Shown piece after piece: positions 31,252 to 64,000 of a stretch of 64,000 nucleotides of DNA. The translations under genes and the position numbers were made by a program. A model generated the notes under the pieces. The model saw only the letters and a program-made list of their open reading frames with translations, was not told where the DNA came from and made no database searches. The DNA comes from Beta vulgaris subsp. vulgaris (lineage: Eukaryota; Streptophyta; Magnoliopsida; Caryophyllales; Amaranthaceae), in the NCBI RefSeq assembly GCF_026745355.1, contig NC_079206.1:45013216-45077215 (forward strand), given 5' to 3'. Every line of letters starts with the position of its first letter. The first letter of the stretch is position 1.

Positions 31252-31256
31252 ATACT

Positions 31257-31535: not shown

Positions 31536-31599
31536 TGCTCTTCTTCATTCGAAGCTCCATATCCAGTTATACCCTTCAAAAACCTTGGGACTCCAAAAA

Positions 31600-33260: not shown

Positions 33261-33789
33261 AGGTGGGCCTGATTGGGAATTCTTATCTAAAGATTTTTTT
33301 TAAAGAATTTCGATGCTTCTAGTTTTATTTGGGCTGGATCATTGACTGTTTCTCCACCAATATCAATGCTTGCAATTGAATTCTTCCTCTTCTTATTAGA
33401 TGCAACATCGTGGAAGAACCTTGTGTTTGGTCTCCCTCATTGAGCCATAAGACTCGAGAATCTTGGGTCCAATACAACTTTTTCCTTTTAACCCACATCC
33501 ACAGATCAGTTTGGGCCTTTTTTCGAAGCTCTAATTCACTCGGACTGAGATCTCTTTGATTGCTTAGGTTATCAAATCGTTGGATTGGGTCTTTTAGCTA
33601 TTTAATGTTTGAGTCAATATTACCAAACTCATTATGATTCCACGTTTTTAGGCTCCCTTTAACCTTCTTCAGTATGTCGACCATGGACTGATTTGAGGTG
33701 TTGCTCCAAGATTCTTTCATAATTCTCATGCAACTTGGATCAGTAAGCCAATAATTGGGAAATTTGAATGGTTTTGGTCCCCAGTTTCT
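33261..33789 (-). pseudogene. LINE region between endonuclease and RT
   Basis: By position this is the linker of ORF2. Frames are broken and I see no block worth naming. It continues the LINE without interruption. Confidence 0.55.
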
Positions 33790-36831: not shown

Positions 36832-37236
36832 TGTTTCTGTCTAGAAATTAAGGGTGTTAATTCCTTTGCTTAGGGAATACCGGGTCAGATCTGAATGTCC
36901 TGAGTCCAAAGTCCGTACGCCGAAATCCTGCAAAAGTAATGGTTAGACTGCCCCAGAGGTGGTTCCGGGATCGCCTCTTCGACGCTCAAGTCAGTGATTA
37001 AGCTAGAGAGATAAAGTCTAGAGAGAGATGCTCTGGTTTGTTAGGTAAGAATTCAATACCTTCTCATTGATGAGGGGGTTGGGTATTTAGAGTGCTTTGG
37101 AAATCCCAGCTGTAGGCCAGCTGGAATGCACTGACAGCTGGAAAACATTGCCATAGGTGGGCCCCCCTGGGGGCTTAAGGCTTCGCTGGGCTTGAATTGT
37201 CCCTGGCTGGCTTAACCTTGGAAATAAGCCCAAACA
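36832..37236 (-). repeat. 3' LTR of the Tat element
   Basis: Matches 48149-48568 with scattered changes. It lacks a short tandem duplication present there (CCCAGCTGTAGGCCAG). Its TATA box has decayed to TCTAAATAC (- strand), while the 5' copy keeps TATAAATAC. The - strand polypurine region GTGGGGCTAAT lies next to it at about 37237-37247. Confidence 0.93.
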
Positions 37237-37379
37237 ATTAGCCCCACGCCAGGAATGGGAAGTATCGAGGCCTTGCTGAAGCGTCTCCCGTTCGTGGCGG
37301 AACCTAGTTGGCCCTGAGGCGAGATCGACCTGATCCTACAGGAAGAGAGCGAGCTGACCCGGTCCCCTTAAGAGAGGGG

Positions 37380-38090
37380 AGGCGTGTGCCGACCCGGTCT
37401 CCTTGAGGAGACGGGAGCACATGCCGACCCGGTCGCATAGAGGAGATGGGGGGCGTGTGCCGACCCGGTCTTCTTGAGGAGGGGGAGCACATGCCGACCC
37501 GGTCTCCTAGAGGAGAGGGGAGGCGTGTGCCGACCCGGTCTTCTTGAGGAGGGGGAGCACATACCGACCCGGTCTCCTAGAGGAGAGGGGAGGCGTGTGC
37601 CGACCCGGTCTCCTTGAGGAGAGGGGAGCACATGCCGACCCGGTCTCCTAGAGGAGAGGGGAGGCGTTGGCCGACCCGGTCTCCCTAAGGAAAGGGGAGG
37701 CAAGTGCCGGCCCAGTATCCTTGAGGAGAGGGAGCACATGCCGACCCGGTCTCCTAGAGGAGAGGGGAGGCGTGTGCCAACCCGGTCTCCTTGAGGAGAG
37801 GGGAGCACATGCCGATCCGGTCTCCTAGAGGAGAGGGGAGGCGTTGGCCGACCCGGTCTCCCTAAGGAAAGGGGAGGCAAGTGCCGGCCCGGTATCCTTA
37901 AGGAGAGGTGGCGTATGCTTCCCTAGTGCCCTTTGAGAGGAGAGGATGGCGTACCGACCCGGTCTTCTCTGAAGAGGGGAGGACATGCTTCGACCCGGTC
38001 TCCTTAAGGAGAGGGGGGAGCGTGCCGACCCGGTCTCCATGAGGAGAAGGGGGAGCGTGCCGACCCGGTCTCCACTAGAAGAAGAGGCGT
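37380..38090. repeat. Tandem array A in the Tat 3' region
   Basis: About twenty copies of a 35-36 bp unit built on GCCGACCCGGTCTCCT and GAGGAGAGGGGAG. Two variants alternate (with GCACAT or GGCGTGT), giving a 70-bp higher-order period. Period read from starts of CCGACCC at 37389, 37424, 37459, 37494 and onward. Long Arg/Pro-rich open frames on the - strand here are by-products of the repeat. GC content is far above the surrounding DNA. Confidence 0.93.
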
Positions 38091-38183
38091 GAAAAACATA
38101 AGATTTTACCGGCATGGCTCGGATGGGGGCCAATGAGTCCCATGCTTGTCCGAGCCGGTGTCCTTCCTTGCTAAGCCAATTCG

Positions 38184-38961
38184 TTGGACGCGGCTCGGAT
38201 GAGGGGCCAATAAGCCCCATGCTTGCCCGAGCCGGTGCCTTTTCTTGCTTAGCCAATTCGTTGGACGCGGCTCGGATGAGGGGCCAATGAGCCCCATGCT
38301 TGTCCGAGCCGGTGTCTTCTCTCGCTAAGTCAATCTGGGACTTAGGAGACTGACTCAACCAAAGAGGAGAGCCTCCTTGGGCCGAGTTGGTTGGACGCGT
38401 CTCGGATGAGGGGCCAATGAGCCCCATGCTTGTCCGAGCCGGTGCCTTCTCTCGCTAAGTCAATCTGGGACTTAGGAGACTAACTCAACCAAAGAGGAGA
38501 GCCTCCTTGGGCCGAGTTGGTTGGACGCGGCTCGGATGAGGGGCCGATGAGCCCCATGCTTGTCCGAGCCGGTGCCTTCTCTCGCTAAGTCAATCTGGGA
38601 CTTAGGAGACTAACTCAACCAAAGAGGAGAGCCTCCTTGGGCCGAGTTGGTTGGACGCGGCTCGGATGAGGGGCCAATGACCCCATGCTTGTCCAAGCCG
38701 GTGCCTTCTCTCGCTAAGTCAATCTGGGACTTAGGAGACTGACTCAACCAAAGAGGAGAGCCTCCTTGGGCCGAGTTGGTTGGACGCGGCTCGGATGAGG
38801 GGCCAATGAGCCTCATGCTTGTCCGAGCCGGTGCCTTCTCTCGCTAAGTCAATCTGGGACTTAGGAGACTGACTCAACCAAAGAGGAGAGCCTCCTTGGG
38901 CCGAGTTGGTTGGACGCGGCTCAGATGAGGGGCCAATGAGCCCCATGCTTGTCCGAGCTGG
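38184..38961. repeat. Tandem array B in the Tat 3' region
   Basis: A 130-bp unit starting TTGGACGCGGCTCGGATGAG at 38261, 38391, 38521, 38651, 38780 and 38910. A short 77-bp unit lies at 38184, and the first full-looking step at 38261 lacks the same 53-bp block. One unit is 129 bp because of a single deletion. The copies are nearly identical, so the array expanded recently. Confidence 0.93.
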
Positions 38962-39295
38962 TGCCGGGAACTTTAGGAGTGCTGGCAAAAGTGACCGAGC
39001 TTGGGATCCGAGCTCATGAACTTGAGCTGGTGAACTTAATGGGAATTCGAGCTGACGAACTTCACTGAAACCTTGGAACTTGAAGTGCCACGTGGCAATC
39101 GTGGATTGTTGGGGTGCTAGAAAACATGGTGGCGATTTAACTTCCGGCGATTCATAGCACTTTGTGACCCTTCGCATTCTTTGGAGCGGTATCTTTCGGA
39201 TTGTTTTGGGCCATCTGAGAGGCCCATCAAGAGGGCAAAAGCGCAGGTCCCGGTCCATATTTCGACGCGGGACACGGAAATCGAGGATTTTTTCC
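38962..39295. other. Unique DNA between array B and the antisense promoter
   Basis: GC-richer DNA without a gene that I can support. Short repeats of GAGCT(T/C)... and GAACTT words occur at 38990-39080. It is the presumed upstream region of the antisense gene. Confidence 0.5.
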
Positions 39296-39300
39296 TATAA
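39296..39300 (+). promoter_or_regulatory. TATA box of the antisense gene
   Basis: CCTATAAGTAGGG at 39294-39306 is followed about 35 bases later by a CT-rich leader with two long CT runs (39341-39415). This is the usual layout of a plant core promoter. CAG then GTACGC at 39438-39446 could be the donor of an intron in the leader. Confidence 0.55.
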
Positions 39301-39448
39301 GTAGGGAGAGAGGGGAGAGATTTTGTCACTTTTACAATTCTCTCTCTCTCTCTAAACTTGAGTTTTCTGCTCTCTCTCTCTCTCTACTTCGGAGCTCTTT
39401 CTCTCTCTAAGTCCGGGCTTCACTTTATTCGTCCGACCAGGTACGCTT

Positions 39449-42078
39449 TTGTTTTGTTTTTTCACTAAGTTTTTTCTCTTTCGTTTAATAAAATCGGCCG
39501 ACCCCCTCTTGTTGATAAATAATGGGGAGCTCGTCCGAGTCAGTGACACCTCCCCCTCACCTCCTTATAATTTAGCCGAGGAAGTGAGGGGTATGGGAAT
39601 GGTATTGGTGTCAACTTTAATAAGTTGCCCGGATCCCTCGGCTGTGCCTGAGGCGCTTTCCTTCCCGAGTACTCCTTCGCAAGCCGAGGAGGAGGATGCC
39701 GAGGGTGCCATCCCTCTACCCTGGGAGGTGTCCCTGGCCTATCCCTTTTCGAGGAGTTACTTAGACAAGTATTTGTCTGATGGTGTAGTTAGGATAACTA
39801 TGCCGGGAGAAGAAGGCGAAGCTTCGACGTCCGGGCGATTCGTGTATCCTGAAATAGACCCCAAGGGCGGACCGGGAGCGAAGTTTCCTCTGCGCTCATT
39901 AATAAAGGCTTTGCTAGAAGATGCCCGAGGCCAAGCAGCCAAATTTCAAATAAAGGACCCCTATTTGCTGGTCCGACCCGATGCTAGCCATACTATTTTG
40001 ACTCCTCCACCCGGGTGCACTGCCTTTTACTACAAAGCCATGGAAATGGGCTTGGGGTTCCCGCTGACCAAGTTCAAGAAGGATTTGCTGAACGCATACA
40101 ATTTGTGTCTGGGTCAGCTTTCCCCGAACTCCTGGGGCGGAATTCTGGCTGTCCAGGTGATCCGTGACCTTATTGGTGTTAGGCCAACCCTCACTCTCTG
40201 GCGCCATATGTACAAGCTGTACGAGATGCCGGCAGGGGATCATGGTCCTGGTTGGTGGTGCTTCCAGGCTCGGCGGGGCTACCGAACGGTCCTTGACCTT
40301 CCCACTTCCCAAAAAGGGCTTCGCCGAGGATTTGCTTTTGTATATCACGGAGGGGAGTGGGGTATCCCCACCATACCTCCGTCGGCCGACCCAAACCATT
40401 GCTTGAACTTCAAGGTGCCCGAGCTATCCGATGAGGAGGCTGTGGCTGCTATTTATATGCAATTGGAGGCCAAGATTGTAGATGGCGGCGAAGTCTTTGT
40501 AGCGGGGAACTGGCTCCCGAGCTGCAAACTTTTTAAGAACGAGCACTTCCTGGCGGCGTTCGGTCTGAGCCCGGCCTTTCCTAAGGGTAATTCGGCAAAA
40601 GGGGGTCCGGTTGACTTGTTTTTATTGCTTTATTTGCTATATCTTTCTAACCGCCTTTTTCCTTTTCCAGAAGCTTCTCTAGCATTCATTAAGGAAACCG
40701 ACCAAGAAATTGCTGAACGATTGACTTCCGCTGCTTTGAAAGCTGCTACGATAAAGGCCGAGATGAAGGCCAACAAAATCAACAAACCCTCCAAGCCAAA
40801 GGTATGCAATCTTTCCATCCGACTTGGTTGGGGCTTACATTTCATAATCTCACCAACGTTTGGGTTTTTCTAGGACCCTTCCAACCCTAAGCCGAAGAAG
40901 CGTAAGGAACGGGACGAGGTGAGGGTCGAGCTGACCGAGAAGGCTTTGGCTAAGGCCCGGGCCGAAAAGGAGGGTTCTGCAAAGAAGACGAGGAAGGAGC
41001 CTTCTGTCGAGGTAAACAGTCCTCGACCAACTTCCGGAGAGGGTGACACTCATGTCTCGGTTCACCCCTCCGACCCCTCCTTGGCTGAGCAGACTCTGTC
41101 CGAGGCGCCAGTCCCCTTCACTCAAATGTCCAAGACGGACAAGAAGAGGAGGATTTATGATGCCTTGGAGATCCTATGTACCCAGACCGACCGAGATCAT
41201 ATCAACGCGGTCAATGGGAGGAATGAGTCGAGCGAGCTTTTTCGCTCCTGGATGGACGTAAGTGAATTTGTTTTACTTTGTCTTTTACTTTGCCTTTTTC
41301 TTTGCCTTTTATCTCTCAACCTCCACCTTCTAACTAGCTTTCATCTTAGCAGTTTTCTATCCGGATGACCAAGGTGGCCGAGGACCGGCTTGCTTTGGTT
41401 CAAGAGGTCCAGGAGCTGAAGGATGCGGCTCGGACGCACTTTGACAAGCTCTACCAAGCTAAGGAGGGTAAGCGCTTGGCCGAGCTGAAGCTGGACGAGG
41501 CTGAAGAGAAGATCCGAAAGGGCGAGGAGGCCTGGCAAAAGGAACAGGAGGAGTGGAAGGTGGAGAGGGCCAACTTATCAACGGCCAAAGGCAATGCTGA
41601 ATCGGCTAAGGCTGCCGCTAAGGCCAAAGTGACTCGGATCCAAGGCGACTTGGACAGGGTTAAATTTAAGCTAGCCACGGCCGAGGCTCAGCTAAAGGAA
41701 GCCCAGGCGGCGGTCTCTCGTTCCCAGGAGGAATGGTTCACGGCATGGCAGGCCTCTGATGCCTGTACTGACTTCTGTGCCGACGTGGGCCAATCCTCCC
41801 ACAAGATGGGTGAAGACGAGGCACTATCCAAGCTCAGGGTCGCCCTTACCGACTGCTGCCCTTTAGCGGACTGGAACTCGGTCTGGTCCCGCTACCAGGA
41901 GCTGGTTGAAGCCGAGGCAGCCGTGATTCGAGCCAAGATGGTCGAGGAGGCGAGCTCGGATGATGAAGATGATGATGACGATGAGGAAGCTGTCGAAGAA
42001 GGCGGAAGCACCAAGCCGCCTCAGCCAGAGATCGCTGCCGAGCAACCTGCGGCCAACCCCTCCACCCAGCTGCCTTAG
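39449..42078 (+). CDS. Antisense gene of the Tat element, "putative gypsy-type transposon" family, spliced
   Basis: It lies opposite to gag-pol, tail to tail with integrase. Coding blocks: 39449-40586, 40671-40801, 40874-41257, 41353-42078. The gaps begin GT and end AG: 40587-40670 (84 bases, ends TTTTCCAG), 40802-40873 (72 bases, GTATGC to TTTCTAG) and 41258-41352 (95 bases, GTAAGTG to TTAGCAG). Splicing across the last two restores the frame. The first part has YYKAMEMGLGFPLTKFKKDL and LWRHMYKLYEMP, as I know from Tat-lineage antisense ORFs annotated as Transposase_28-type. The end is an Ala/Glu/Lys coiled coil (41370-41760), then an acidic tail with a DDEDDDDDEE run. The start is unsure: ATG 39522 (MGSSSESV) is in another frame, and ATG 39593 is in frame. 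Function unknown. Confidence 0.8.
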
Positions 42079-42487
42079 GATTTTAGTTTCTCTTCTTAGC
42101 TTACTTAGCTAGTGGCCTCTCCGATGGAGTTATTTGTAATTTTGGGCCTTTTGTATTTTTGCTTTCATCCATGTATTTTTTGCAAACTTTTGGTTGTGTT
42201 TTGCAACTTCATTAATGCAATACAACTGCTATTTTGCAATTTCACTTGTCCTTTGCCATACAATTTATTTTTGTTATTTGTAATATCGCAATTTATAGTG
42301 GACTGGTTAAGTCTTGTTTGCAATATTTTCAAAATGGACTGGTTAAGTCTTTTCACTTCTTGGGCAAAAACCCGACTTGATACATAGACTGGTAAAGTCC
42401 GAGTTGTTACATTCGAACATAATAGGCAAATCCGACCAGGTAGCGCCGGTTGTATAATATGCCCCTATTGCAAGTAACAAAAAGAAA
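42079..42487. other. Convergent intergenic region in the Tat element
   Basis: AT-rich DNA between the stop of the antisense gene and the end of integrase on the other strand. It probably holds the 3' end of the antisense transcript. There are two copies of GGACTGGTTAAGTCTT (near 42300-42350). Confidence 0.55.
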
Positions 42488-43820
42488 TTACACATAGTAT
42501 TTTTTGAGATTATCTAGGTTCCAAGGTCGAGCCAGGGGGACCCCTTCGGGAGATTCGAGCCGGAATGTCCCTGGCTTGAGGACCTCTGTAACCTTGTAAG
42601 GGCCATCCCTGCCCCCAACTTCCCTTTGAGATGGGAGAGTCCGGTGGCTTCCACTTTTCCGACGACCCAATCACCAAGGTTGATCGGCCTGGGCTTCACT
42701 CGCCTGTTAAAATGCCTTGTGATTCTTTGCTTGTACCGGATGGCTTGCAGTAACGTATTGCCTCGAGTTTCCGGCAACAGGTCTAAGTTGATGGGTTTCT
42801 CCTCTTCGTTCTTGTCGAACTCATAGAATGTCATTCGAGGAGAAGGGATCCCCACCTCGACCGGGAGGACGGCCTCGCTGCAATAGACCAATCCGAAAGG
42901 GGAATACCCCGTAGCCTCTTTCACTGTTGTTCGGCCCGACCAAAGGACTCCGGGTAGGTCGTCCACCCATGCCCCTTTAGCTGCGTCAAGGGACTTCTTG
43001 ATTCCCTTCAGGACAATTTTATTGGCCGATTCGGCTTGCCCATTGGTTTGAGGACGGGAGACGGCGGAAAACCTTGTTTGGATGCCGAAGCGGGCGCAAT
43101 AATCTCGGGTCGGCCCGCTGTTGAATTGTCGGCCATTGTCCGACACCAGTGCTCTTGGAATTCCGAACCGGGTGATGATATTCCTCCAGATGAACAGTTG
43201 GACTTGCTTATCAGTAATTGACGCCAGCGGTTCGGCTTCTGTCCACTTGGTGAAGTAGTCGATGGCCACAATCAAGAACTTTCTTTGCCCCGATGCCGGG
43301 GGAAAAGGTCCGAGCAGGTCCATGCCCCACTTGTCGAAGGGTAGTACCGCTTGAATGGTGGTGAGGGGAGTAGCAGGAGCTCTAGGTATGTCCGAGTGGA
43401 CCTGGCAAGATGGGCATCGTCGGGCCAGATCCGAGGCATCGGCCTTCAAGGTGGGCCAATAGTATCCTGCTCTTAGGGCTTTTCCAGCTATTGTTCTGCC
43501 CCCTTGGTGGCTACCGCACGCTCCTTGGTGTATTTCCCGGAGGACATAGTTTCCTTCCTCGGGGGTTACACACTTGAGAAGGGGATAAGTGAAAGACTTT
43601 TTGTAGAGCTGACCGTCGTGCCAAAGGAACCAACCAGATTTATGCTTGACCCAGTCGGCTTCCTTAGGGTCGTCTGGTAAGGTCCCGTCTCGCAAGTACT
43701 CCACAATTTCATTCATCCAGCCCGAGGAATGGTTGAGGACCAGCTGTTCTTTGGCGTTTATGTTGGGCTCCCTCAACACTTCCCAAGTTATGGTTCTAGG
43801 GGCCGACCCTTCAGCAGAAC
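42488..43820 (-). pseudogene. pol (INT): Tat integrase, near-complete with a late frameshift
   Basis: The zinc region reads EIHQGACGSHQGG ... ARRCPSCQ. The DDE core has WGMDLLGPFPP (Asp), LVSDNGRQFNS (Asp) and QTNGQAESANK (Glu). The C-terminal GDWVVGKVEATG block then shifts frame near 42620-42660; the end ESPEGVPLARPWNLDNLKKY is in another frame and stops at 42488. The long open frame covers 42514-43977 together with the end of aRH. All three catalytic residues are present, so the damage is slight. Confidence 0.92.
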
Positions 43821-44323
43821 TGGCCATCCGAGCCAGTGCATCAGCCTGCTGATTTTCCGAGCGAGGGATATGAGTAATCCGGAATCCGGACAACCGTCCA
43901 ATGACTGCTCGAGCTTTAGCCAAATACATTCTCATGTTATCCTCCTTGGCCTCGTATTCTCCTGAAACCTGACCCACAATGAGCTGTGAGTCGGATTTTG
44001 CTACGATTTGAAGTTGCTCCGGCAGGATGCAAAGTTGTATTCCGAGGATAAGGCTTCATACTCGGCTTCGTTGTTAGATCCAAGAAACTCAAACTTAACA
44101 GCATACTCAATTTTATCCCCGACCGGTGGTTTGATGACCAGCCCGGCTCCACAACCATTCTTCGTGGAGGATCCATCGACCAGCAACTCCCATTCTTCCT
44201 GTGAGCCGACCGGGGTCTGGTGGCGCACTCGATGATGAAATCAGCAAGGGCTTGGGCTTTGATCGCCTCTTCGGGCTCAAATTCTAGCCCAAAATCCGCT
44301 AGCTGATCCGCCCAATCGGTCAT
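43821..44323 (-). pseudogene. pol (aRH): Tat second (archaeal-like) RNase H
   Basis: WELLVDGSSTKNGCGAGLVI (first Asp) and GSNNEAEYEAL (Glu) lie at about 44040-44200 in one frame. After a frameshift near 44000 the rest reads GQVSGEYEAKEDNMRMYLAK and RSENQQADALARMAS (last Asp) in the integrase frame. NNEAEYEAL is the hallmark of the extra RNase H known in Tat-lineage elements. It lies between the first RNase H and INT as expected. Confidence 0.85.
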
Positions 44324-45672
44324 CCGACTCGAGTGGTTCCTACTTTCAATGATCTTCCGAGTGGCTGTCCGGTTAGGACTTTGATGGGGTGCGCTTGAAA
44401 GTAGGGCTTGAGCTTCCGACTTGCCATTACTAAGGCAAAGACCATCTTCTCGACATCACTGTACTTCGCCTCAGCCCCTCTATAGCATGGCTGATGAAGT
44501 AAACAGGATGTTGCTTTCCTTCTCGCTCGGCTATCAGGACTGCGCTAAGGCGTAGTCCGAGACAGCAAGTATATGAACAAAGGTTCCCCCGGCAAGGGGG
44601 AGATCAGTTTAGGCAAGGTTGCCAAGTGATTCTTGAGGGAGGTGAAGGCTTGCTCGGCTTCGTGTCCCATGCGAACTCTTTTCGCTTCAAGGCCTTGAAG
44701 AACGACAAGCTCTTATCAGCCGACCTGGAAGAAACGACCGAGCCGGCTAGCAGCCGGTTAGGCGCTGTACTTCCCGACGTTCCGAGGAGATTTCATCTCT
44801 AGGACCGCTTTGATCTGTCCGGGTTGGCTTCGATTCCTCTCTCATCCACTAGAAATCCGAGGCACTTTCCCCCCTTAACTCCGAAGACACATTTTTTGGG
44901 TGTTAGCATCATTCGGTACTTTCTCAGGGTGCTCAACGTTTCTTTCAGATCTGCTGGGTGATCCGACTGAGCCTTGCTTTTGACTATCATATCGTCAACA
45001 TACACTTCAATGTTCCGACCCAATTGATCGCTGAAGATTTTGTTGACGGTTCGTTGATATGTAGCCCCTGCATTTTTCAGGCCGAACGGCATCATCTTAT
45101 AGCAGTAGACACCCTGAGGAGTAATGAATGCCGTATGAACCCTATCCTTCTCGGCCATGGGAATTTGATGATAGCCAGCACTCGCGTCCATGAAGCTGAG
45201 AAGGGCATGCCCTGCCGTTGAATCGACCAGCCTATCGATTTTTGGCAGAGGGTGATTGTCTTTTGGGCAGGCTTTGTTTAAGTCGGAAATCGACGCACAT
45301 TCGCCATGCCCCGCTCGGTTTTTTGACTAATACCACGTTGGCTAGCCACTCCGAGTACTGACATTCTTCAATAAAACCCCTTCTCAAGCAGCTTCTTGAC
45401 CTCCGCGGCTGCTGTGGCATTTCTTTCAGGACCCTGGTGCCTGAGCTTTTGTTTAATTGGTCTGAACCCCTCTTTGATGTTAAGCTCATGCACATGATTT
45501 TCGGGTCGAGACCAGGCATTTCGTGGCCTCGTAGGCAAGACATCTTGGTACTCCGTGAGCACTTGGATGATATCTGCCTTGTTTGAGGGTCCATGGCCTT
45601 GCCTACCCTGACAGTCCGACCGGGTCCTGGCCGATGCGACTCTTCGTCATCCTCGGCTGGCTGGGCGTTCAT
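44324..45672 (-). pseudogene. pol (RT-RH): Tat reverse transcriptase and first RNase H, decayed
   Basis: Blocks on the - strand: EYQDVLPTRPRNAWSRPE region (about 45520-45560), ECQYSEWLANVVLVKKPSGA with WRMCVDFR (about 45310-45375), MDASAGYHQIPMAEKDRVHT and FGLKNAGATYQR (45060-45191), NIEVYVDDMIVKSKAQSDHP (YVDD, about 44960-45015) and CLGFLVDERGIEANPD (about 44820-44870). The RNase H part toward 44330 is in broken frames. Motif wording is that of Tat/Athila Gypsy RT. The catalytic YVDD is intact, but frameshifts near 45230 and 44800 disrupt it. Confidence 0.9.
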
Positions 45673-45842
45673 TGTTGGGGTTTCAGTTATATATACCCGA
45701 GGCGGTTGAGGGCTGACCCTTCATACTTTCTCTTTTCGAGCTTTTGACGTCTTTTTCGAGTCCTTTTGGACGTCGTTATTCGACCTTTTGGACGTCGTTA
45801 TTTTTGAGGCTATTCACATAGCACTCTCTTGCTGTTTGCTGA
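45673..45842 (-). other. Linker between Tat PR and RT
   Basis: Short coding-like DNA in broken frames. A tandem duplication GACGTCGTTATT(C/T) occurs at 45760-45805. Confidence 0.5.
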
Positions 45843-46271
45843 TCACTTGAATCTTTCCCACCTTTCCGTCATCAGTTTCGAACTGCATGAGGATTGATAG
45901 GTAGATATGGCGGCCTTAGCCTTGTTCAGCGTGGGTCTCCCATTATTATGTTGTATGGCAAGGGATGTCGACCACCAAGAAGTCGACTGGTAGGCTTCTC
46001 CCCTTGCCTTTTCACCCATCCGAGTGGGTAATTTTATTGACCCGACCGGGTGTACAGAGTTGTCCCCGAAGCCTATGAGCGGCTGATTCAAGGGGGTTAC
46101 ATCCCGCTCGGTGTATTGCAGCTTCTGGAGGCACTCGAGGGTGATGATGTTAGCGGATGACCCGCTATCAACCAAAACCCTCTTTACCCGGGTATTTGCC
46201 ACCTTGAGTTCGATGACCAATGGGTCGTCATGTGGCGTATGCAACGTCCGACTGGGCTCCCCAAAGGTCAT
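45843..46271 (-). pseudogene. pol (PR): Tat protease
   Basis: The frame of 142 codons reads RTLHTPHDDPLVIELKVAN and RVLVDSGSSANIITLECLQK, where DSGSSA is the aspartic protease site, and then LIGFGDNSVHPVGSI. This is the usual Tat PR wording. It overlaps the end of the gag frame by four bases in another frame, so either a frameshift mutation or programmed frame change separates them. The C-terminal 45 residues look off-frame. Confidence 0.88.
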
Positions 46272-48060
46272 GACGGGCAGCTGGGACGGGGCAGCTGGAC
46301 ATCGAGTACCTGATGCTTGAGGTTTTGGAGGTGGGCCTTGCGTGCTCGGCCGGTCAGGCCTCCCGACGCGAATCCTCCTGCTATGACACTGATGAACCCT
46401 TTGGTGTCTCCGCTATTTGACTGACCCACTTTTTGCTTCCCTTTCTCCTCGGCGGAGTGCTTTAGGTAGTGGTTGAGCTTCCCTTGGTCGGCTAGACCAT
46501 CCAAGGATTTTTTAAGCTCTCTGCAGTCTTTGGTGGTGTGTCCACACTCCTTGTGGTAATCGCACCATAAGCTCTTGTCTCTCCGAGACGATGATGTCCG
46601 AATGGGTGCTGGCCTGGGAAGCCAATTTTTGTTCCGGATGTCAAAATAGATCTCTTTTCGGTTTTTATTGAACCGAGGGTCGTTGCCGTTATCGATGAGC
46701 CGATCCCCACAGCCCCCCGTTCTCTGATGCTTAGGCTGACCCATGTGACCCCCTTCATCTTTTCTCTTCTTGGTCCCTTCATCCGAGTAACGACAGATGT
46801 CTGTTGCTTGGATGAATCTTTGGGCTCTGGCCATGGCTTTTGAGTAGGTCTTCACCTCGTTCTCGGCCAGTGACCATCTGAGCCGACCCGGTTGGAGTCC
46901 GGACATGAGGGCTGCGAAAGCTACCGCATCCTGCAAGTCGGTGATTTTGAGGGACTCTTCATTGAACCTCTTGATGTAGTCTGACAGAGGTTCATTCTTG
47001 TCTTGCTTCACCCCCATGAGATGAAGGCTGGTTTTTCTTTGCCTCTTTCCAGCTACAAACTGGTGGATGAAGAGGTGTTCAAGTATGGCGAAGTCAGTGA
47101 TGACCCCCGCCGGGAGTTCTTGGAACCAATTGAGGGCTAGACCCTTGAGGGTGGTGGGGAAGAAACGACACCAGGTGGCCTCACAACTTGTCTGAACGCT
47201 CATCTGAGCCTTGTAACTAGCCATATGATCATCTGGGTCGGTTAGGCCCGCGAATGGCTCGATCAAGGGAGTTTTAATTTTTCCCGGGGTTGGGGTCCCT
47301 AGGATTTCTTGACTGAAGGGGATCAGGAACTTGAGCCCTCCTCCAGTCAGCCTAGGAGGCTGAGAATGAGCCGAGTCCCCTTGACCCTCTCGGTCATTTG
47401 CCTTCTTCTTGAGGAACTCCCGGGCGTCATAGCCTTGGCTGAGGCGCTTCTTGTTAAGAAAATCTCGGGTGTCTTGGGGTTTCCGACCCGCGCCCCCTCT
47501 CGAGGACTTAGATACGTGGGTCTCCGCGTGCTGACGGGCTGACCCCTGTCGTGCGGATTTCTCTTTCTCCCGACGACTTGGGTCTCTCGCATCGGATCGT
47601 GGCCGGCTAGGCTACTGATCCCGATTAGAACGAGAGTGGTCATCCCTTTGGTCCCTTTGAGAGCGGACCACAGTGCGCTCTCTGTGCTCATGTTGGTTGA
47701 GCGGGATGAGCTGGTGTTGCCTCTGTTGGAGCATGGCCATCATATCCATCATGCCTTTTTGAAAGGTTTCTTAGAGCTGAGCAGTAATAAGGGCAATGTC
47801 CGCCGCAAAGAGCGGTTGGGGCTCGACATTCTGAATTTGCTGAGAGGCGGATCGGGGGTCCAAAGTTTGAACGGTGGGGACCTCCGACCCAAAGAGGGGG
47901 TCTGCTCGGCCTCCCTATTATGCGCGGGTGAGTGGCCTCTCTCCGGCCGAGGGACTGGGGGTTCCCTATTATGTGCGGGCGAGTGGCCTCTCTCCGGCCG
48001 AGGGACTTGGTCAGAGGCTTGCTTGCTGCGAGTGTTTTTGGTTGGTGCCATTGTCAACTG
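46268..48060 (-). pseudogene. gag: Tat gag
   Basis: Gag starts near 48051 (MAPTKNTRSKQASDQ) with a tandemly repeated VPRPERGHSPAHNRE, and is broken by stops and frame changes to about 47270. From there 332 codons are open to 46268. They contain LKGLALNWFQELPAG, DYIKRFNEESLKI and AFAALMSGLQPGRLRWSL (retrotransposon gag domain), and the knuckle CDYHKECGHTTKDC followed by RELKKSLDGL. The protein would form the particle. The C-terminal third is closer to intact than the N-terminal part. Confidence 0.9.
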
Positions 48061-48125
48061 GCGTTTGAAGCTGAGTAGCTGATGGGGTAAATCTTAATGA
48101 GTGGTGGCGAAGTAACTTTTCGTAC

Positions 48126-48148
48126 TCTTCCCACAGACGGCGCCAAAC
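48126..48148 (-). other. Primer-binding site of the Tat element
   Basis: The - strand reads TGGCGCCGTCTGTGGGAA, two to three bases from the 5' LTR. This phrase is typical of Tat/Retand-group elements. It fixes the orientation. Confidence 0.88.
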
Positions 48149-48568
48149 TGTTTCTGTCTAGAAATTAAGGGTGCTAATTCCTTTGCTTAGGGAATACCGG
48201 GTCAGATCTGAATGTCCTGAGTCCAAAGTCCGTACGCCGGAATCCTGCAAAAGTAATGGTTAGACTGCCTCGGAGGTGGTTCGGGATCGCCTCTCCGACG
48301 CTCAAGTCAGTGATTAAGCTAGAGAGATAAAGTCTAGAGAGAGATGCTCTGGTTTGTTAGGTAAGAATTCAATACCTTCTCATTGATAAGGGGGTTGGGT
48401 ATTTATAGTGCTTTGGAAATCCCAGCTGTAGGCCAGATCCCAGCTGTAGGCCAGCTGGAATGCACTGACAGCTGGAAAACATTGCCATAGGTGGGCCCCC
48501 TGGGGGTTAAGGCTTCGCTGGGCTTGAATTGTCCCTGGCTGGCTTAACCTTGGAAATAAGCCCAAACA
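48149..48568 (-). repeat. 5' LTR of the Tat element
   Basis: 420 bp, TG...CA ends, next to TSD AGACA. It keeps TATAAATAC (- strand, about 48396-48404) and has a 15-16 bp tandem duplication of CCCAGCTGTAGGCCAG near 48420-48450 that the other LTR lacks. Confidence 0.93.
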
Positions 48569-56978: not shown

Positions 56979-57243
56979 CTCCCTATGCCACATAATAGTC
57001 TAAACACTTTCTGTATTTGTTTGTCCCTAATTATCACAATCATTAATTTTTGCATGGTCCCACTCTATCTTTGTCAATAAAGGATTCCCAACTATCTCTT
57101 ACATTTAGTAAAAAAATACATCACCAAGTCCTACTACATCTATTTTTTCAATAAAATAACATTTGATTACCACATTGATTAGAATTTATCACTTTAAGCT
57201 ACGTGTCTCAAGAAGTGTTTAGAATTTTTTGGTTCAGATGGAG
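56979..57243. mobile_element. Degenerate Stowaway-type MITE
   Basis: The left end CTCCCTATGCCACATAATAG and inverted right end CTCCATCTGAACCAAAAAAT are related, and the inner parts of both arms share CTAAACACTT. TA flanks both sides (56977-56978 and 57244-57245). Length 265 bp. Confidence 0.7.
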
Positions 57244-58025
57244 TAATTTATTCCCCCATTTTTAAATAGATGCATCCATATCGACTTGAACATTTGCCAA
57301 TGTACAACTTTGACTATTAATATTTCTAATCATCAATTACTAATTAATAAAAAAATACAAAAAAATATTTCGAAAATATATATCAAAACAAGTTCAACAT
57401 TTTGTTTGCTGACATCATTTGATACATATGTACGAATATATGGTCATGATGGAATCTGAAAATAATTCAAAATTCAAAATAAAAAATCTATTTGTCAATA
57501 AAAAATTATCATATTTTTCATAAACATAAAATAATATTGAATTAAACATATGTAGGCACGAGCTATACTCCAAGTACTTATAGTTATCATTATTAATAAT
57601 TTACTTTAAAATTATATCACCAAATATCATTTGGTTTAATGGTTAAGACTTGATCATAAAATCAAATCCTATACAATGCATTTACTATTTTTTGTTGTTG
57701 TACATATATAATGTGTAGTAAAACAAGATAAAAAAGAGCATCACGTGGCACTATTACTTAATTAAGAGCACCTTTTAATATATTAGTATAGAGTATAGAT
57801 AGATAGATTTGTATTTTGTCATATTACATAAAATAACTTGGCCTTGATTTTTTCCATCCCCCATTTTAGTCTCTCTCTTCTCTTTCTTCTTCCTTCAATA
57901 TTTTTCAAACTAATGTTTAACACCAATTTCTCGAATTTCATAGGAAAATAGGGGAAAAAGATTTCAGTTCGATAAATTTTGGACTGAATTGAACTCGACT
58001 CCAAACACCCCTAATTAAGGTTGTC
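57244..58025. other. AT-rich spacer
   Basis: No gene or element that I can support in this stretch. Confidence 0.5.
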
Positions 58026-58351
58026 TAGAGTGCGGTATGGACAGCACCATACCCCAATGCAAACCGTTTTTTCGCGGTTTGGGTTGGTTTGCGGTTTTAA
58101 AATTGCGGTTTGGGTTATAATTTCAAGAAAACCGTGGTTTGCGGTTTGGGTTGGGTTTTAATTATTGTAAACCGAAACCCGTACCGTAAACCACAATTTT
58201 ATATAAGTTTTTTTCAATTTTTTTTAAATACACTTGACAAGGTGGCATACAAGTATACAACTGAAAAAAAAAGTTTGAGGTAAAGAACTTGGACACTTTT
58301 GATAAATTATTATTTATGTTTAATTATGAAGTCAAATTCATATTTATTTGG
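58026..58351. repeat. Possible hAT-like MITE arm with GCGGTTTGGG repeats
   Basis: The word GCGGTTTGGGTT and variants recur about five times at 58060-58160. The first part is then followed by plain AT-rich DNA. Right of the Athila-like insertion, 63360-63440 holds inverted words of the same kind (CCAAACTAAACTGCACCAAA). The two may be the ends of one old MITE that served as target. No clean terminus or duplication was found. Confidence 0.35.
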
Positions 58352-58383
58352 ACTATTTATATTTATTAACAAATTTTTTTACT
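58352..58383 (+). repeat. 32-bp direct repeat, left copy
   Basis: An exact 32-base copy of 63283-63314. The two bracket the Athila-like insertion. The last seven bases (TTTTACT) also match element sequence at 62044-62050, so the left border is blurred by microhomology. Confidence 0.95.
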
Positions 58384-59219
58384 GATTAAAAGAACATGTC
58401 GTCTTTTGTGTTTAGATAGTTTTTCATCTGTTTTGAGAGAGAATTCAAAGAAAATATTGTAATCCTTTATATTACGGAGAGCTAATCTTCCATCTTGGTG
58501 TATCAATCGAATCAACCATTTTAATCAACTTGTGAGTTCAATTCTTCCTTTTAATTGCTTGAATGTTGATGATTTTTCATGTTCTTCATGTTTGATTGTT
58601 TTTGTGCTTAAGTTAACTTGATCAATTAACTTCTTGCTTATTGCAATCTCTACTATCTAGATAATTGTCTGCTTTGAGATTATCTAGGGTTTGTAGTTTA
58701 TGCCCAATTATCGCACGCTCGTGGATGATTGAGTATAAGAAGAATCATCATAAAATTTTGCATTCGACCGCTTGTGTGAATGCTAGATTACCCTATTGAA
58801 ATCTCCCTAGTTGTTATCAAATTGCTTAATTAAACCTAGAACGCTCGGGCTAGGTTGTTACGCCATTAAGGGTCAGATTAGAGCGCTCGCTTAGTCTTAC
58901 CACTACGTTAGGGGAGATTGAATCTTATGATTCACAATAGGGCGTTCAAGTAACTTAGGTGTTGAATTGTTCAATAATCAAGGGTTGAATTGGTTGTGAA
59001 GATTAATTGCCAAGATCTCGTTTATTATTTGATCTTCCTTGTTTTTGCTTTGTTTGTTTCATTTTCATTCCTCAAAACCCCCCCATTGTTACCATAGCAC
59101 ACGTCTAGTCAAACCAAACCTGCGTTCTCTTGGATTCGAACCTTACTTCCTTATACTACGTTTGTGTAGGGTAGTATTGATTTATTTGCGCGTTAGCCGA
59201 TACGACTTAGGCCTCGCCA
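58384..59219 (+). repeat. Partial 5' LTR of the Athila-like element
   Basis: The first 621 bases recur at 62051-62672, so this is the 3' part of an LTR whose start is missing. It ends ...CTCGCCA just before the PBS. Repeated GCGCTCG/CGCTCG-containing phrases (for example CGCACGCTCG, AACGCTCGGG) are scattered at 58710-58950. Confidence 0.85.
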
Positions 59220-59223
59220 AATT

Positions 59224-59241
59224 TGGCGCCGTTGCCGGGGA
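59224..59241 (+). other. Primer-binding site, Athila type
   Basis: TGGCGCCGTTGCCGGGGA, a phrase typical of Athila-like and related Gypsy elements, four bases after the LTR end. Confidence 0.92.
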
Positions 59242-59302
59242 GGCAGCAAGTTTGGGTTTTTTTTGTTGTTTGTTGTTTGTTGTTGGTGTGTGAACCCGTC
59301 TT

Positions 59303-61597
59303 ATGGTTCACACCCGTTCTACTAATCAAGGAGCTTTGTTTTTTGATTCAGAGATCGAAAGGACGCTCTATCGGTTGGGAAAGGAAATTCGGGATCACTT
59401 CCGTGAGTTGCCTTATTATATTGGTACTGAGGAAGAAGAGATGCCGCCTAGAGCTGATCCGACATTGAGGGAGCTTTCTACTCCTAATCTGGACCAGGCA
59501 CCATTAGCCATTCAATATCCAGAGTTTGGGGAGAATGTTACTTTTGAGCTGAATTCAGGTCTTGTTCATTTACTGCCAAGCTTCCATGGTTTAAATGGGG
59601 AAGATCCAATCAAGCATCTTGCGGAATTCCATGATGTTTGTACTAGTATGCAGCCACGAGGTGTTACGGAGGATCAAATCAAACTGCGGGCCTTTCCTTT
59701 TTCATTGAAGGATAAGGCTAATGATTGGTTCTATCATCTAAGCCCCAACAGTATCAACACATGGAGAGGGATGAAGCAAGCTTTCTTGGAGAAGTTATTT
59801 CCTTCAAGCAAGTTAAATGAGCTTAAGAAGGCCATTAGCAACATTGAGCAAGGATATGATGAGATCCTTTATGACTACTTAGAGAGGTTTAAGAGGCTCG
59901 TTGCTTGTTGTCCCTACCATGGTTTTGCCGAGAAGGATCTTGTGCTGTACTTAGTTGCTGGGCTCCTTCTAGATGAGAGAAGGATGGTGAATGCTGCTTG
60001 TGGGGGTAACATTGATAACAAGACCCCACAACAAGCCATGGAGCTCATAAGTGAGTTTGCTGAAAGTTCCCGCACTTATTCTAAGAGAAATACCACTCGG
60101 GGAGTTAAAGCGACAAGTTCTACATCATCTTTGGAGTCGGAGGTGTCCGCCCTTAAGGGAATGTTCCGGCAATTTTTGGTGGGTGGTAATCAACAACAAG
60201 TGAAGGCTTGTGGTATTTGTTCCAACAACGGTCATCCGACTGATTCTTGCTCGACTTTGCAAGAGGAAACCCGAGAGGTGAATGAAGTAGGATATCAAGG
60301 ACAAAGGAAGTATGATCCATTCTCAAACTCTTACAATCCCGGATGGAGAGATCATCCGGCCTTTAGTTACAAGCAAGGGAATCCAACTCTTCAAGGAAAT
60401 CAGAATTTTCAACAAGGTAATCACCCTCCTCCTCACATGCCACCATATCAAGCTCAAGGGAAGTCCTCTAGCTCCAACTCAATGTCCACCGAGGATATGA
60501 TCAAGGCCTTGGCTCAAAATTTGACTACTATGCAGTCCAACATGGTGCAATTTCAACAGGAGACAAGGTCTAGCATTCACAATTTGGAAACACAAGTGGG
60601 CCAAATGTCTAGTGTCGTGAATAAACTTGAGGCCCAAAGTTCGGGGAAGCTACCATCTCAAACCGAGGTGAATCCCAAGAGGAATGTGAGTGCCATGACT
60701 TTGAGGAATGGCAAAGAGTTGGTTGATCAAGAGCCCGACAAAAGCAAAGTTGTGGAGGAGATTGTAACCAAGGAAGAGGAGGTGGAGGTTCTAGTCCCAT
60801 CAAAAGAAGCTGAAAAATTGGTGAGTCCTAGCTCTCACCAAGAGGTAAAATCTTTTCCGGATTTCAAACTGGTTCCCCCATTCCCCGAAGCATTAAAGGA
60901 CAATCGTAAGCTTGAATCTTCTAAGGATATTTATGAAACATTTAGTCAATGTGTCGTAAATATTCCTTTGTTAAAATTGATAAAAGATGTGCCTTTGTAT
61001 GCTAAGTGGTTGAAAGAAATTTGTTCCATCAAAAAGAAGAAAAATTCAAAAGGGAAGCAAAAGGTGAAGGTTAGTGAACATGTTTCCGCCGTTTTTCAAA
61101 AGAGAATACCTAAAAAATGCAATGATCCGGGCATGTTCACTATACCTATAACCCTCGGTGACACAAAGATTGATAGGGCTATGCTAGATTTGGGGGCCTC
61201 CATTAATGTGCTTCCTTCTTCCTTATATGAGTCCATAGAACTTGGTGAATTGCTTCCTACTCATGTTGTCATATAATTAGCGGATCGGTCCACTTCCATT
61301 CCTAGAGGTGTATTGAAGGATGTTCTAGTGGAAGTTGATAAAATGACATTTCCTGCTGATTTTTATGTAATTAACATGGAGCATGATAGGCATTCCGCCC
61401 CTATTCTTTTAGGGAGGTCGTTCTTGAAAACGGCTAATGCTAGGATCGATTGTGGCACCAATTCTTTGACCATGCGGTTTGATGGTAAAAATGTTGAGTT
61501 TAAAATGCATGATGCCATGGGAAGTACAGAGGATCACTTTATCTATTCTATTGATGTGGCTAACCCGAGTGTTCATATGGCATTTTTCAGTACCTAA
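59303..61597 (+). pseudogene. gag-pr: Gag-protease of the Athila-like element, one nonsense codon
   Basis: 657 codons are open from ATG 59303 (MVHTRSTNQG) to TAA 61274-61276, then the same frame continues to 61569 and runs out at TAA 61595-61597. Gag block: FHGLNGEDPIKHLAEFHDVC, KDKANDWFYHLSPNSI and YDYLERFKRLVACCP. Zinc knuckle CGICSNNGHPTDSC at residues 303-316. Coiled-coil-like stretch near 395-450. Protease site MLDLGASINVLP near residue 627, then ILLGRSFLKTANARID downstream of the stop. The stop stands where a Gln of the VVIQLADRS phrase is expected. After VANPSV the frame enters unrelated 3' region DNA, so pol was lost by deletion. Otherwise strikingly intact. Confidence 0.92.
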
Positions 61598-62175
61598 TTC
61601 ACTATTTTTGTGTGGACTTGAACATGTTTTGGTATGATTTTGAACTCTTTCTCAACAATTTGTATTTGGGTTCTTTAATTTCTTTTATGTTGGTGAGAGG
61701 GTCCAATTGGAACAATTTGCTATTGAAGAAAATGCCAAGTCACAAACTCAAGTGTGCAAGTGGAATAAGTCATCAAAGTATGCATTTAAGTGGCAAGGAA
61801 ACAAAGATGGAAGTGAGTATTTATCAAATGATGAAGCATCACGAGGAAAGAAAGAAGGAAGCTGTACTGGAAGGCTCCGCGGTTGCGAAGCTAATGACCG
61901 CGGGCGCGACGAATTTTGGAAGAAAACTGCCGTGAGCATCTCCGCGACCTCACCGCGGGCGCGGACCCCCTCCGCGGTCGCGGAGCTTTCCTCCGCGGTC
62001 GCGGAGCCCTGTAACGCAGAATTCGGCTTTTCGTCTTCCCCTGTTTTACTGATTAAAAGAACATGTCGTCTTTTGTGTTTAGATAGTTTTTCATCTGTTT
62101 TGAGAGAGAATTCAAAGAAAATATTGTAATCCTTTATATTATGGAGAGCTAGTCTTCCATCTTGGTGTATCAATC
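61570..62175 (+). repeat. Inverted repeat, left arm
   Basis: 606 bases that recur inverted at 62669-63273 with a few differences. It starts TGTTCATATGGC and includes a GC-rich tract (61880-62010) built from CCGCGG and TCGCGG words, then enters LTR sequence at 62051. Frames coding in both arms are mirror copies of one another and not genes. Confidence 0.95.
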
Positions 62176-62668
62176 GAATCAACCATTTTAATCAACTTGT
62201 GAGTTCAATTCTTCCTTTTAATTGCTTGAATGTTGATGATTTTTCATGTTCTTCATGTTTGATTGTTTTTGTGCTTAAGTTAACTTGTTCAATTAACTTC
62301 TTGCTTATTGCAATCTCTACTATCTAGATAATTGTCTGCTTTGAGATTATCTAGGGTTTGTAGTTTATGCCCAATTATCGCACGCTCGTGGATGATTGAG
62401 TATAAGAAGAAATCATCATATAATTTTGCATTCGACCGCTTGTGTGAATGCTAGATTACCCTATTGAAATCTCCCTAGTTGTTATCTAATTGCTTAATTA
62501 AACCTAGAACGCTCGGGCTAGGTTGTTACGCCATTAAGGGTCAGATTAAAGCGCTCGCTTAGGCTTACCACTACGTTAGGGGAGATTGAATCTTATGATT
62601 CACAATAGAGCGTTCAAGTAACTTAGGTGTTGAATTGTTCAATGATCAAGGGTTGAATTGGTTGTGAA
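62176..62668 (+). repeat. LTR portion between the inverted arms
   Basis: 493 bases equivalent to 58509-59000 of the partial 5' LTR. It forms the loop of the large inverted repeat. Confidence 0.92.
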
Positions 62669-63273
62669 GATTGATACACCAAGATGGAAGATTAGCTCTC
62701 CATAATATAAAGGATTACAATATTTTCTTTGAATTCTCTCTCAAAACAGATGAAAAACTATCTAAACACAAAAGACGACATGTTCTTTTAATCAGTAAAA
62801 CAGGGGAAGACGAAAAGCCGAATTCCGCGTTACAGGGATCCGCGACCGCGGAGGAAAGCTCCGCGACCGCGGAGGGGGTCCGCGCCCGCGGTGAGGTCGC
62901 GGAGATGCTCACGGCAGTTTTCTTCCAAAATTCGTCGTCCCCGCGGTCATTAGCTCCGCGAGCGCGGAGCCTGCCCGTACAGCTTCCTCCTTTCTTTCCT
63001 CGTGATGCTTCATCATTTGATAAATACTCACTTCCATCTTTGTTTCCTTGCCACTTAAATGCATACTTTGATGACTTATTCCACTTGCACACTTGAGTTT
63101 GTGACTTGGCATTTTCTTCAATAGCAAATTGTTCCAATTGGACTCTCTCCAAACATAAAAGAAATTAAAGAACCCAAATACAAATTGTTGAGAAAGAGTT
63201 CAAAATCATACCAAAACATGTTCAAGTCCACACAAAAATAGTGAATTAGGTACTGAAAAATGCCATATGAACA
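62669..63273 (-). repeat. Inverted repeat, right arm
   Basis: Inverse copy of 61570-62175. It joins the preceding LTR at a shared GATT. Its other end is followed by nine bases, TGGCATATC, of which ATGGCAT is an inverse copy of ATGCCAT a few bases earlier. The 32-bp direct repeat follows. Confidence 0.95.
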
Positions 63274-63282
63274 TGGCATATC

Positions 63283-63314
63283 ACTATTTATATTTATTAA
63301 CAAATTTTTTTACT
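63283..63314 (+). repeat. 32-bp direct repeat, right copy
   Basis: Exact copy of 58352-58383. Together they mark the borders of the Athila-like insertion. Confidence 0.95.
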
Positions 63315-63452
63315 CTTAGATTACATAATTAATATTGCAGAGAAAAAAATGATTAGATCCAAACTAAACTGCACCAAATCGTTTTGCGAGGCTCAATTTG
63401 CTTTGGTTTGGGCAAAAATACAGTACGATTTAGATTGGAAAAATATCAAATT
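63315..63452. other. Spacer, possible MITE arm
   Basis: Contains CCAAACTAAACTGCACCAAA and GCTTTGGTTTGGGC, which echo the repeats at 58060-58160 in inverse. Confidence 0.35.
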
Positions 63453-63693
63453 TGTTGAGAAACAGTGGATGAACAATTCCACTGTTCACATATATGTGAA
63501 GTCCACATTTCCTGCATGCATTTAATGCATGTTAGGTAATTTTTCTTCCGTGTTGAAAATCTTACAATTGTGCACAGTAGAAAACTTTGCTTATAAATAC
63601 CATCAATGTAAGAAATCAGTTTATACATCAATACGAATAACAATACTCTCTGATATATTTACATACTTCTCTCTCTCCATATTTCTCACAACA
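63453..63693 (+). repeat. 5' LTR of a further Copia-like element (Copia-3)
   Basis: A 241-bp block from TGTTGAGAAACAG to CTCACAACA. It has a TATA box TATAAATA at 63592-63599 and a pyrimidine-rich end. CGTTATCAGCATGAG follows at once, like the TTATCAGCACGAG primer region of many short-LTR plant Copia elements. The 3' LTR would lie outside the window, so the start is tentative. Confidence 0.6.
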
Positions 63694-63708
63694 CGTTATC
63701 AGCATGAG
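63694..63708 (+). other. Primer-binding region of Copia-3
   Basis: CGTTATCAGCATGAG directly after the putative LTR. It contains TATCAG as in tRNA-iMet-primed elements. Confidence 0.55.
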
Positions 63709-63800
63709 TGTTCTACCGAAAAAAATTTAAGTATCTTTAAAAACTTTACATCTATTCTATTTTAAGTTTTTCTCCAAACCCAACTCTTTACTATCCGAAC

Positions 63801-64000
63801 ATGGATCAACAAAGTAACGGGATTAACATTGTTTTACACAATGTCTCTGTTTTGGGTGTTTATTATTGGATAGAGCGAAACAATGTGCCATTCACTACCA
63901 ACCCAGCGAGGGGAACTGTAATACAACCTCGACCCAGTAACCGTAACGACGGTACAAATACCCGTACTAGAGAAAACCGACAAACCCCTGTTCCCAACAC
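63801..64000 (+). CDS. Open frame at the right edge, partial
   Basis: ATG 63801 (MDQQSNGINIVLHNVSVLGV) stays open for 66 codons to the window edge. The product so far is rich in Asn, Thr and Arg. It lies about 95 bases after the primer region of Copia-3, so it could be the start of gag, but it does not show the usual Copia gag opening. No function assigned. Confidence 0.35.
   Translation, partial: MDQQSNGINIVLHNVSVLGVYYWIERNNVPFTTNPARGTVIQPRPSNRNDGTNTRTRENRQTPVPN

What the first reader, a model, noticed from the sequence alone, without database searches (positions are those of the whole stretch)
58352..63314. Athila-like insertion with a 32-bp direct repeat, a 0.6 kb inverted repeat and microhomology junctions
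Normal LTR elements show a 5-bp duplication and two direct LTRs. Here an exact 32-bp direct repeat brackets a partial LTR, gag-PR, a 3' region, and an inverted copy of that region. The left border shares TTTTACT with internal element DNA (62044-62050). The inversion joins at a shared GATT (62669-62672). The right border has a nine-base filler, partly an inverse copy of the adjacent ATGCCAT. These marks suggest reverse-transcription products with template switching that were captured at a staggered break by end joining, rather than integrase-mediated insertion. An alternative is later rearrangement of a normal element.
Basis: partly seen in the sequence, partly recalled or inferred. Interest (0 to 1): 0.75.

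Follow-up and report, generated by a model that had tools for sequence, protein, structure and literature searches.

The report
Retrotransposon DNA patched into chromosome break
In what is most likely sugar beet DNA, two pieces of a jumping gene appear to have been used as patching material when a broken chromosome was repaired, instead of inserting themselves by their own enzyme; this looks like a natural example of an already described kind of event.

Summary
The finding is mostly real. A 32-bp exact repeat flanks a 4.9-kb Athila-like insert. Neither border is an LTR end: the left shares 7 bp with the element, and two LTR-bearing tracts meet head-to-head at GATT. The five best gag relatives are Beta vulgaris proteins.

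Two corrections. (1) The 'nine-base filler' is element sequence: 4 of 5 relatives reach this point and all four encode it wholly or in part, one with one base different. (2) The left tract carries an unreported protease-to-3'-region deletion at a 7-bp TGTTCAT. The right tract is undeleted there, so the tracts probably come from different molecules.

Best explanation: Athila DNA, possibly cDNA, was captured at a break staggered by about 25-32 nt and joined by microhomology without integrase. [quoted passage not shown] Later rearrangement of a normal element, LINE-type insertion and simple foldback fit less well.

Donor type (cDNA or chromosomal), empty site and assembly correctness are untested: the genome search was unanswered in 10 of 10 tries. 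New member of a known kind.

The parts
58352..58383 (+). left copy of the 32-bp target duplication; its last 7 bp (58377-58383, TTTTACT) are also element sequence
58377..59219 (+). 5'-truncated LTR (LTR part A); likely LTR end ..CGCCA at 59219
   Evidence: 97.8% to 62044-62685; LTR end inferred from the PBS-like motif just downstream
59224..59240 (+). primer-binding-site-like TGGCGCCGTTGCCGGGG (tRNA-Asp type; motif and assignment recalled)
59303..61276 (+). gag and start of protease ORF, ending in an in-frame TAA at 61274-61276
   Evidence: PF03732; Beta vulgaris relatives, best P0001 93% over 84%; start and stop read
61277..61594 (+). rest of the protease frame after the stop; ends SVH|MAFFST across the deletion junction
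   Evidence: 12 relatives, the first four rows with PF13650, though the piece itself has no Pfam match at 0.001; beet P0003-P0005 read SVHDVFDVR here
61570..61576 (+). internal deletion junction in the left tract: 7-bp microhomology TGTTCAT between protease and 3' region; what normally follows protease is absent
   Evidence: comparison with right tract 63273-63267, which continues into different sequence
61577..62043 (+). 3' region, candidate polypurine tract (61843-61861) and U3 part of the 3' LTR
   Evidence: sequence reading
62044..62672 (+). LTR part B, broken off before the LTR end
62669..62672 (.). head-to-head join of left and right tracts at shared GATT
62669..63282 (-). right tract: LTR (up to the equivalent of 58508), U3 and 3' region in antisense; not deleted at the TGTTCAT point
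   Evidence: 96.8% to 61570-62191; relatives P0121, P0123-P0125
63283..63314 (+). right copy of the 32-bp target duplication

Best explanation
A chromosomal break with ends offset by about 25-32 nt was repaired with Athila DNA. The left end (..TTTTACT-3') paired with 7 bp inside an Athila LTR and gained a 4.3-kb tract (partial LTR, PBS, gag-protease, then after an internal jump at TGTTCAT the 3' region and most of the 3' LTR). The right end gained a separate 0.61-kb tract from an undeleted Athila molecule, with little or no overlap. The tracts were joined head-to-head at GATT, and filling in the offset ends gave the 32-bp duplication. Integrase was not needed. Shown: the anatomy, the overlaps, and that the right tract lacks the deletion. 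Inferred: one event, the break, the pathway (polymerase theta type or other microhomology joining), and cDNA rather than chromosomal donors.
For: Exact 32-bp duplication abutting both borders. No LTR terminus at either border. Overlaps of 7, 7 and 4 bp, where random junctions reach these lengths in 0.08%, 0.07% and 2.0% of draws. Different source molecules: the right tract runs 9 bp past the deletion point with element sequence, and 8 of the 13 substitutions between the tracts (one 1-bp gap left out) fall in one 52-bp stretch (6 and 2 of 20,000 permutations as clustered; width chosen after seeing the data; at widths 30, 80 and 120, 377, 57 and 533 of 20,000). Both chromosomal 3' ends are followed by element SENSE sequence, so if these ends primed synthesis the template was antisense. 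Ordinary elements E2 (GGTAT) and E3 (AGACA) in the window have 5-bp duplications. Hint of cDNA: the outer end of the right tract and the landing point of the deletion lie 9-16 bp apart in element coordinates, at a hairpin of -9.0 kcal/mol (z -2.24; 2 of 200 shuffles as stable) that ranks first of 249 28-nt windows in the A+T-rich 3' region (post hoc), as a reverse-transcriptase pause or transfer site could be.
Against: No empty site, second accession or long read was seen. The deletion could have happened after insertion. The clustered differences could partly be later mutation: the A/B LTRs differ at 9 of 628 positions and the tracts at 13 of 596, Fisher p 0.39, so different molecules rest mainly on the undeleted end. 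With the G+C-rich LTR part included the hairpin is only 84th of 1,081 windows. The overlap at the right border cannot be measured because the parent copy is unknown. In mouse cells duplications at offset breaks come mainly from Ku80/CST-dependent end joining and form at comparable frequency without polymerase theta (passages), which sits awkwardly with a purely theta-type pathway.
Confidence: 0.7

Rival explanations
1. One aberrant cDNA: template switches in the virus-like particle made the deletion and the inverted tail in a single molecule, which was then captured as one piece at a break.
For: Short-homology jumps are typical of reverse transcription (recalled); abnormal template switching is proposed to make complex plant LTR elements (PMC1950507, abstract and results section); deletion point and outer end coincide within 16 bp.
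Against: The tail is not a copy of its neighbour: it lacks the deletion and differs at 13 of 596 positions, so a second template is needed, and an inverted join needs a switch between opposite-sense strands.
Confidence: 0.15
2. A normal Athila insertion was later rearranged (nested opposite element, deletions between short repeats).
For: Deletions at short repeats are common in plant LTR elements (recalled); the deletion at TGTTCAT could be of this kind.
Against: Later deletions would have to remove both outer LTR ends and yet leave an exact 32-bp repeat touching both borders.
Confidence: 0.08
3. LINE-type target-primed insertion of Athila RNA in trans, with twin priming.
For: Frames that look like a LINE reverse transcriptase by eye lie in the window (not tested); long variable duplications and inversions occur with LINEs (recalled).
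Against: No poly(A) at any border and no TTTT/AA-like nick (motif recalled). Twin priming gives antisense then sense on one strand (recalled); here the order is sense then antisense, i.e. both target ends continue into sense sequence.
Confidence: 0.02
4. Assembly artefact (foldback chimera of a normal element).
For: Reads could not be checked.
Against: Foldback chimeras should give near-identical arms (recalled); here the arms are 96.8% identical, one lacks the deletion, and the flanks carry an exact 32-bp duplication.
Confidence: 0.05

Closest known systems
[quoted passage not shown] abstract, part of the introduction and sections 8 and 10 seen)
   Same: LTR-element pieces truncated at both ends, often with short microhomology, sometimes several pieces in sequence; one natural MuERV-L gag insertion with a 10-bp duplication that the authors do not ascribe to integrase
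   Different: Plant, Athila-type donor; longer duplication (32 bp); exact 7-bp overlaps at two joins (theirs mostly 1-5 nt in multiple insertions, 2 bp and an imperfect 27 bp in the two natural cases); head-to-head two-tract structure with an internal deletion in one tract
Patch-mediated DSB repair making tandem duplications in plants (Vaughn and Bennetzen 2014, Schiml 2016; originals not held; known here through passages of PMC7971508 and the abstract and passages of PMC8355091)
   Same: Duplication of tens of bp expected when nearby opposite-strand nicks are repaired; 3' protruding ends favour it (mouse cells)
   Different: Here 4.9 kb of foreign DNA lies between the two copies
T-DNA capture at CRISPR breaks in Arabidopsis (PMC10923293, passages)
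   Same: Extrachromosomal DNA captured at plant breaks, partly through polymerase theta joining with microhomology and templated insertions
   Different: Donor is T-DNA
Errantivirus/Athila retrotransposons of beet, 'Elbe' lineage (PMC11603912, passages; the 2012 paper itself not read)
   Same: Donor family is gag-bearing with an Athila-type PBS motif, relatives in Beta
   Different: Assignment to a named Elbe family not tested; this copy lacks everything between protease and 3' region and both outer LTR ends
Template-switch complex LTR elements of Triticeae and other grasses (PMC1950507)
   Same: Chimeric LTR-element product
   Different: Those have outer LTRs highly similar to each other and 5-bp duplications from a single integration

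Membership tests
RMDR / DSB capture of retrotransposon DNA | Element piece truncated at both ends | tested here: met
   Borders lie inside the LTR (left) and inside the 3' region (right)
RMDR / DSB capture of retrotransposon DNA | Microhomology at least at one border, no integrase-type ends | tested here: met
   7 bp at left border; 7 and 4 bp at internal joins
RMDR / DSB capture of retrotransposon DNA | Captured DNA is a reverse-transcription product | tested here: inconclusive
   Only the coincidence of two end points at a hairpin speaks for it
RMDR / DSB capture of retrotransposon DNA | Known pre-insertion site | not testable with these tools
   No plant genome collection on hand; the genome search unanswered in 10 of 10 tries
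Canonical Athila (Ty3/gypsy) integration | Two complete LTRs with TG..CA outer ends | tested here: not met
Canonical Athila (Ty3/gypsy) integration | 5-bp target duplication | tested here: not met
   32 bp; E2 and E3 in the same window have 5 bp
Athila-like element (sequence relationship of donor) | gag related to plant Athila-type elements, Asp-type PBS | tested here: met
   PF03732, beet relatives, PBS motif; the Athila name and the tRNA assignment are recalled and no tree was built
LINE twin priming | poly(A) end and antisense-then-sense order | tested here: not met
   no poly(A); order sense-then-antisense

The most novel reading that the evidence does not exclude
Natural plant RMDR from the contents of one particle: both ends of a staggered break were continued on minus-strand Athila cDNAs, one of which had stalled at, and one jumped at, the same RNA hairpin, so the locus preserves a snapshot of failed reverse transcription. 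The resulting inverted repeat of about 0.6 kb could also give hairpin RNA against its own family.
Probability: 0.25. Interest if true: 0.6.

Novelty: new member of a known kind. Interest (0 to 1): 0.42.

Why it matters
If read correctly, it shows that plant LTR-element DNA can enter the germ line without integrase and make a long target duplication, so such loci could be missed or misread by annotation that expects intact LTRs and 5-bp duplications. The coincidence of a tract end and a deletion landing point at one hairpin suggests a testable mark of reverse-transcription origin, which the mouse study could not decide for most of its captured sequences. My nine literature searches listed no title or abstract start describing a plant case with this combination; three of the lists were capped (20 of 53, 20 of 23, 12 of 39 papers), and the library lacks most subscription journals.

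Tried and rejected
Filler / snap-back at the right border: rejected after the protein search. Foldback of one molecule: disfavoured because the arms differ by the deletion and by clustered changes. Host MITE at the insertion site: flanks looked hAT-like by eye, but left flank against reversed right flank scored 19 against a shuffled mean of 19.5 (200 shuffles), so not shown. TGGC..GCCA as LTR termini with the LTR start near 61578: dropped by eye, since no purine tract precedes it. Other copies of the fusion SVH|MAFFST: none in the 137 proteins held, but of the 769 hits only the 120 listed could be scanned. DNA relatives: none confirmed in viral contigs (gag query; 10 pattern stretches) or genome contigs (3'-region frame as query; 59 pattern stretches); both collections are a poor place for plant DNA. 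Rfam: nothing at gathering score in 57500-64000. An alignment of the right tract with relatives failed on stop codons; I compared translations instead. Age: if all A/B LTR change is later, 9 of 628 and a recalled rate of 1.3e-8 give roughly 0.5 million years, an upper bound for that reading.
Full report
What was checked. I read the stretch 57800-64000 and searched 57000-64000 for repeats. The 32-bp repeat is exact at 58352-58383 and 63283-63314. Self-comparison of the window gives LTR part 58377-59016 against 62044-62685 at 97.8% and the inverted pair 61570-62191 / 63273-62653 at 96.8%. No other copy of the element was found in the window: apart from these, the short LTR-to-right-tract match and the 32-mer, the element's hits are under 50 bp.

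Source. The gag-protease frame (59294-61273) has 769 relatives at E <= 0.001 among 7,990 scored candidates, of which 120 were listed. The five best are Beta vulgaris proteins (P0001 93% identity over 84% of the query); most of the others listed are from other plants, a few from unnamed contigs. Pfam gives Retrotrans_gag. A PBS-like motif stands at 59224. The name Athila and the tRNA assignment are recalled. The host is therefore most likely beet, but no genome record names it.

The filler is not filler. An open frame across the left tract's 3' region (61564-61932) found five proteins among eight candidates, all from unnamed ENA contigs. Four reach upstream of the point where the two tracts stop matching; P0122 does not. 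P0121 reads FDMPCSYGIFQYL and P0125 MPCSYGIFQYL; P0124 (YAMFIWHF) and P0123 (ICHV) fit the same DNA in the two other frames. The right tract, read in sense from 63282, gives DMPCSYGIFQYL, ICHV and YAMFIWHF in its three frames. So 63274-63282 belongs to the element. P0124 implies a single different base there, P0125 covers only six of the nine bases, and the matching is by codons, not DNA.

The left tract is deleted. Beet relatives P0003-P0005 read PSVHDVFDVR at the end of the protease; the left tract reads PSVH and then passes into the 3' region (MAFFST). The shared letters are TGTTCAT (61570-61576). The right tract has GATATGCCA before TGTTCAT where the left tract has protease sequence. The two tracts therefore do not copy each other at this point. 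Substitutions between the tracts number 13 of 596 (one 1-bp gap left out); 8 lie within 52 bp, a clustering met in 6 and 2 of 20,000 permutations. The width was chosen after seeing the data; at widths of 30, 80 and 120 the counts are 377, 57 and 533 of 20,000. The A/B LTR pair differs at 9 of 628 (one gap left out); the two rates do not differ significantly (p 0.39). A deletion after insertion remains possible and would remove the main argument for two molecules.

Chance. For random junctions drawn from these sequences, an overlap of 7 bp or more came up in 0.08% (target by LTR/3' region) and 0.07% (gag by 3' region), and of 4 bp or more in 2.0% (LTR by inverted LTR/3' region), 200,000 draws each. 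The right border overlap is unknown; by the relatives' codons I expect 0-1 bp (inference).

Mechanism. At both borders the chromosomal 3' end runs into element sense sequence. If those ends primed synthesis, the template was antisense, which speaks against priming on element mRNA. The order sense-then-antisense is the reverse of LINE twin priming (recalled). A staggered break whose ends were continued on, or ligated to, Athila DNA and whose tracts met at GATT explains the borders, the 32-bp duplication and the unequal tracts with the fewest steps. The outer end of the right tract and the landing point of the deletion lie 9-16 bp apart in element coordinates. They sit at a hairpin (-9.0 kcal/mol, z -2.24, 2 of 200 shuffles as stable) that is the strongest of 249 windows in the A+T-rich 3' region but 84th of 1,081 when the G+C-rich LTR part is included. 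I take this as a hint, chosen after the fact, of reverse-transcriptase pausing and so of cDNA. The inner end of the right tract (LTR position 58508) lies about 40 nt after a TATA-like TTTATATTA at 58466, near where a transcript might start; this is unexplained. Which joining pathway acted is open: microhomology suggests a polymerase-theta type, but in mouse cells duplications at offset breaks depend mainly on Ku80 and CST, with theta-type joining as a partial substitute (passages of PMC8355091).

Comparison. Two ordinary LTR elements in the window, E2 (11788-25536, GGTAT) and E3 (36832-48568, AGACA), show 5-bp duplications and TG..CA ends. The closest described process is RMDR in mouse, including a natural MuERV-L case with a 10-bp duplication not ascribed to integrase. 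Plant literature supplies duplications attributed to repair of adjacent nicks and capture of foreign DNA with microhomology. A review of endogenous plant pararetroviruses proposes entry as filler DNA at breaks (PMC10377300, passages). A review of the plant LTR life cycle describes integrase-independent entry as Rad52-mediated recombination and single-strand annealing into related sequences (PMC12786077, passages), which is not what is seen here.

Verdict. Observation partly confirmed, interpretation partly supported, known kind of event, moderate interest. The empty site, donor copies and reads remain untested because the window's own genome could not be reached (10 of 10 genome-search runs unanswered).

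Noticed in passing
1-11787 and 11788-25536: Nested LTR elements: LTR pair 1-2367/9419-11787 (94.9%) whose 3' LTR is split near its end by a second element, 11788-25536, with LTRs 95.8% alike, TG..CA ends and a 5-bp duplication GGTAT.
   Followed up: partly
36832-48568: LTR pair 36832-37237/48149-48569 (93.4%) with 5-bp duplication AGACA; between them gag-pol-like frames on the minus strand (by eye) and plus-strand frames of 503, 164 and 242 aa at 39362-42078.
   Followed up: partly
37356-38965: Two tandem arrays beside the 36832 LTR: 37356-38073 (period 36/70/141) and 38260-38965 (period 130, 5.4 copies, 97% matches), partly covered by minus-strand open frames.
   Followed up: partly
63453-64000: Apparent start of another LTR element (TGTTGAGAAACAG.., followed by TTATCAGCA at 63696) about 140 bp from the insert; runs off the window.
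   Followed up: no
28627-33282: Minus-strand frames that look like a decayed LINE (RNase H-like and reverse-transcriptase-like by eye).
   Followed up: no
58466-58508: TATA-like TTTATATTA about 40 nt before the LTR position at which the right tract ends; may mark the transcript start.
   Followed up: no
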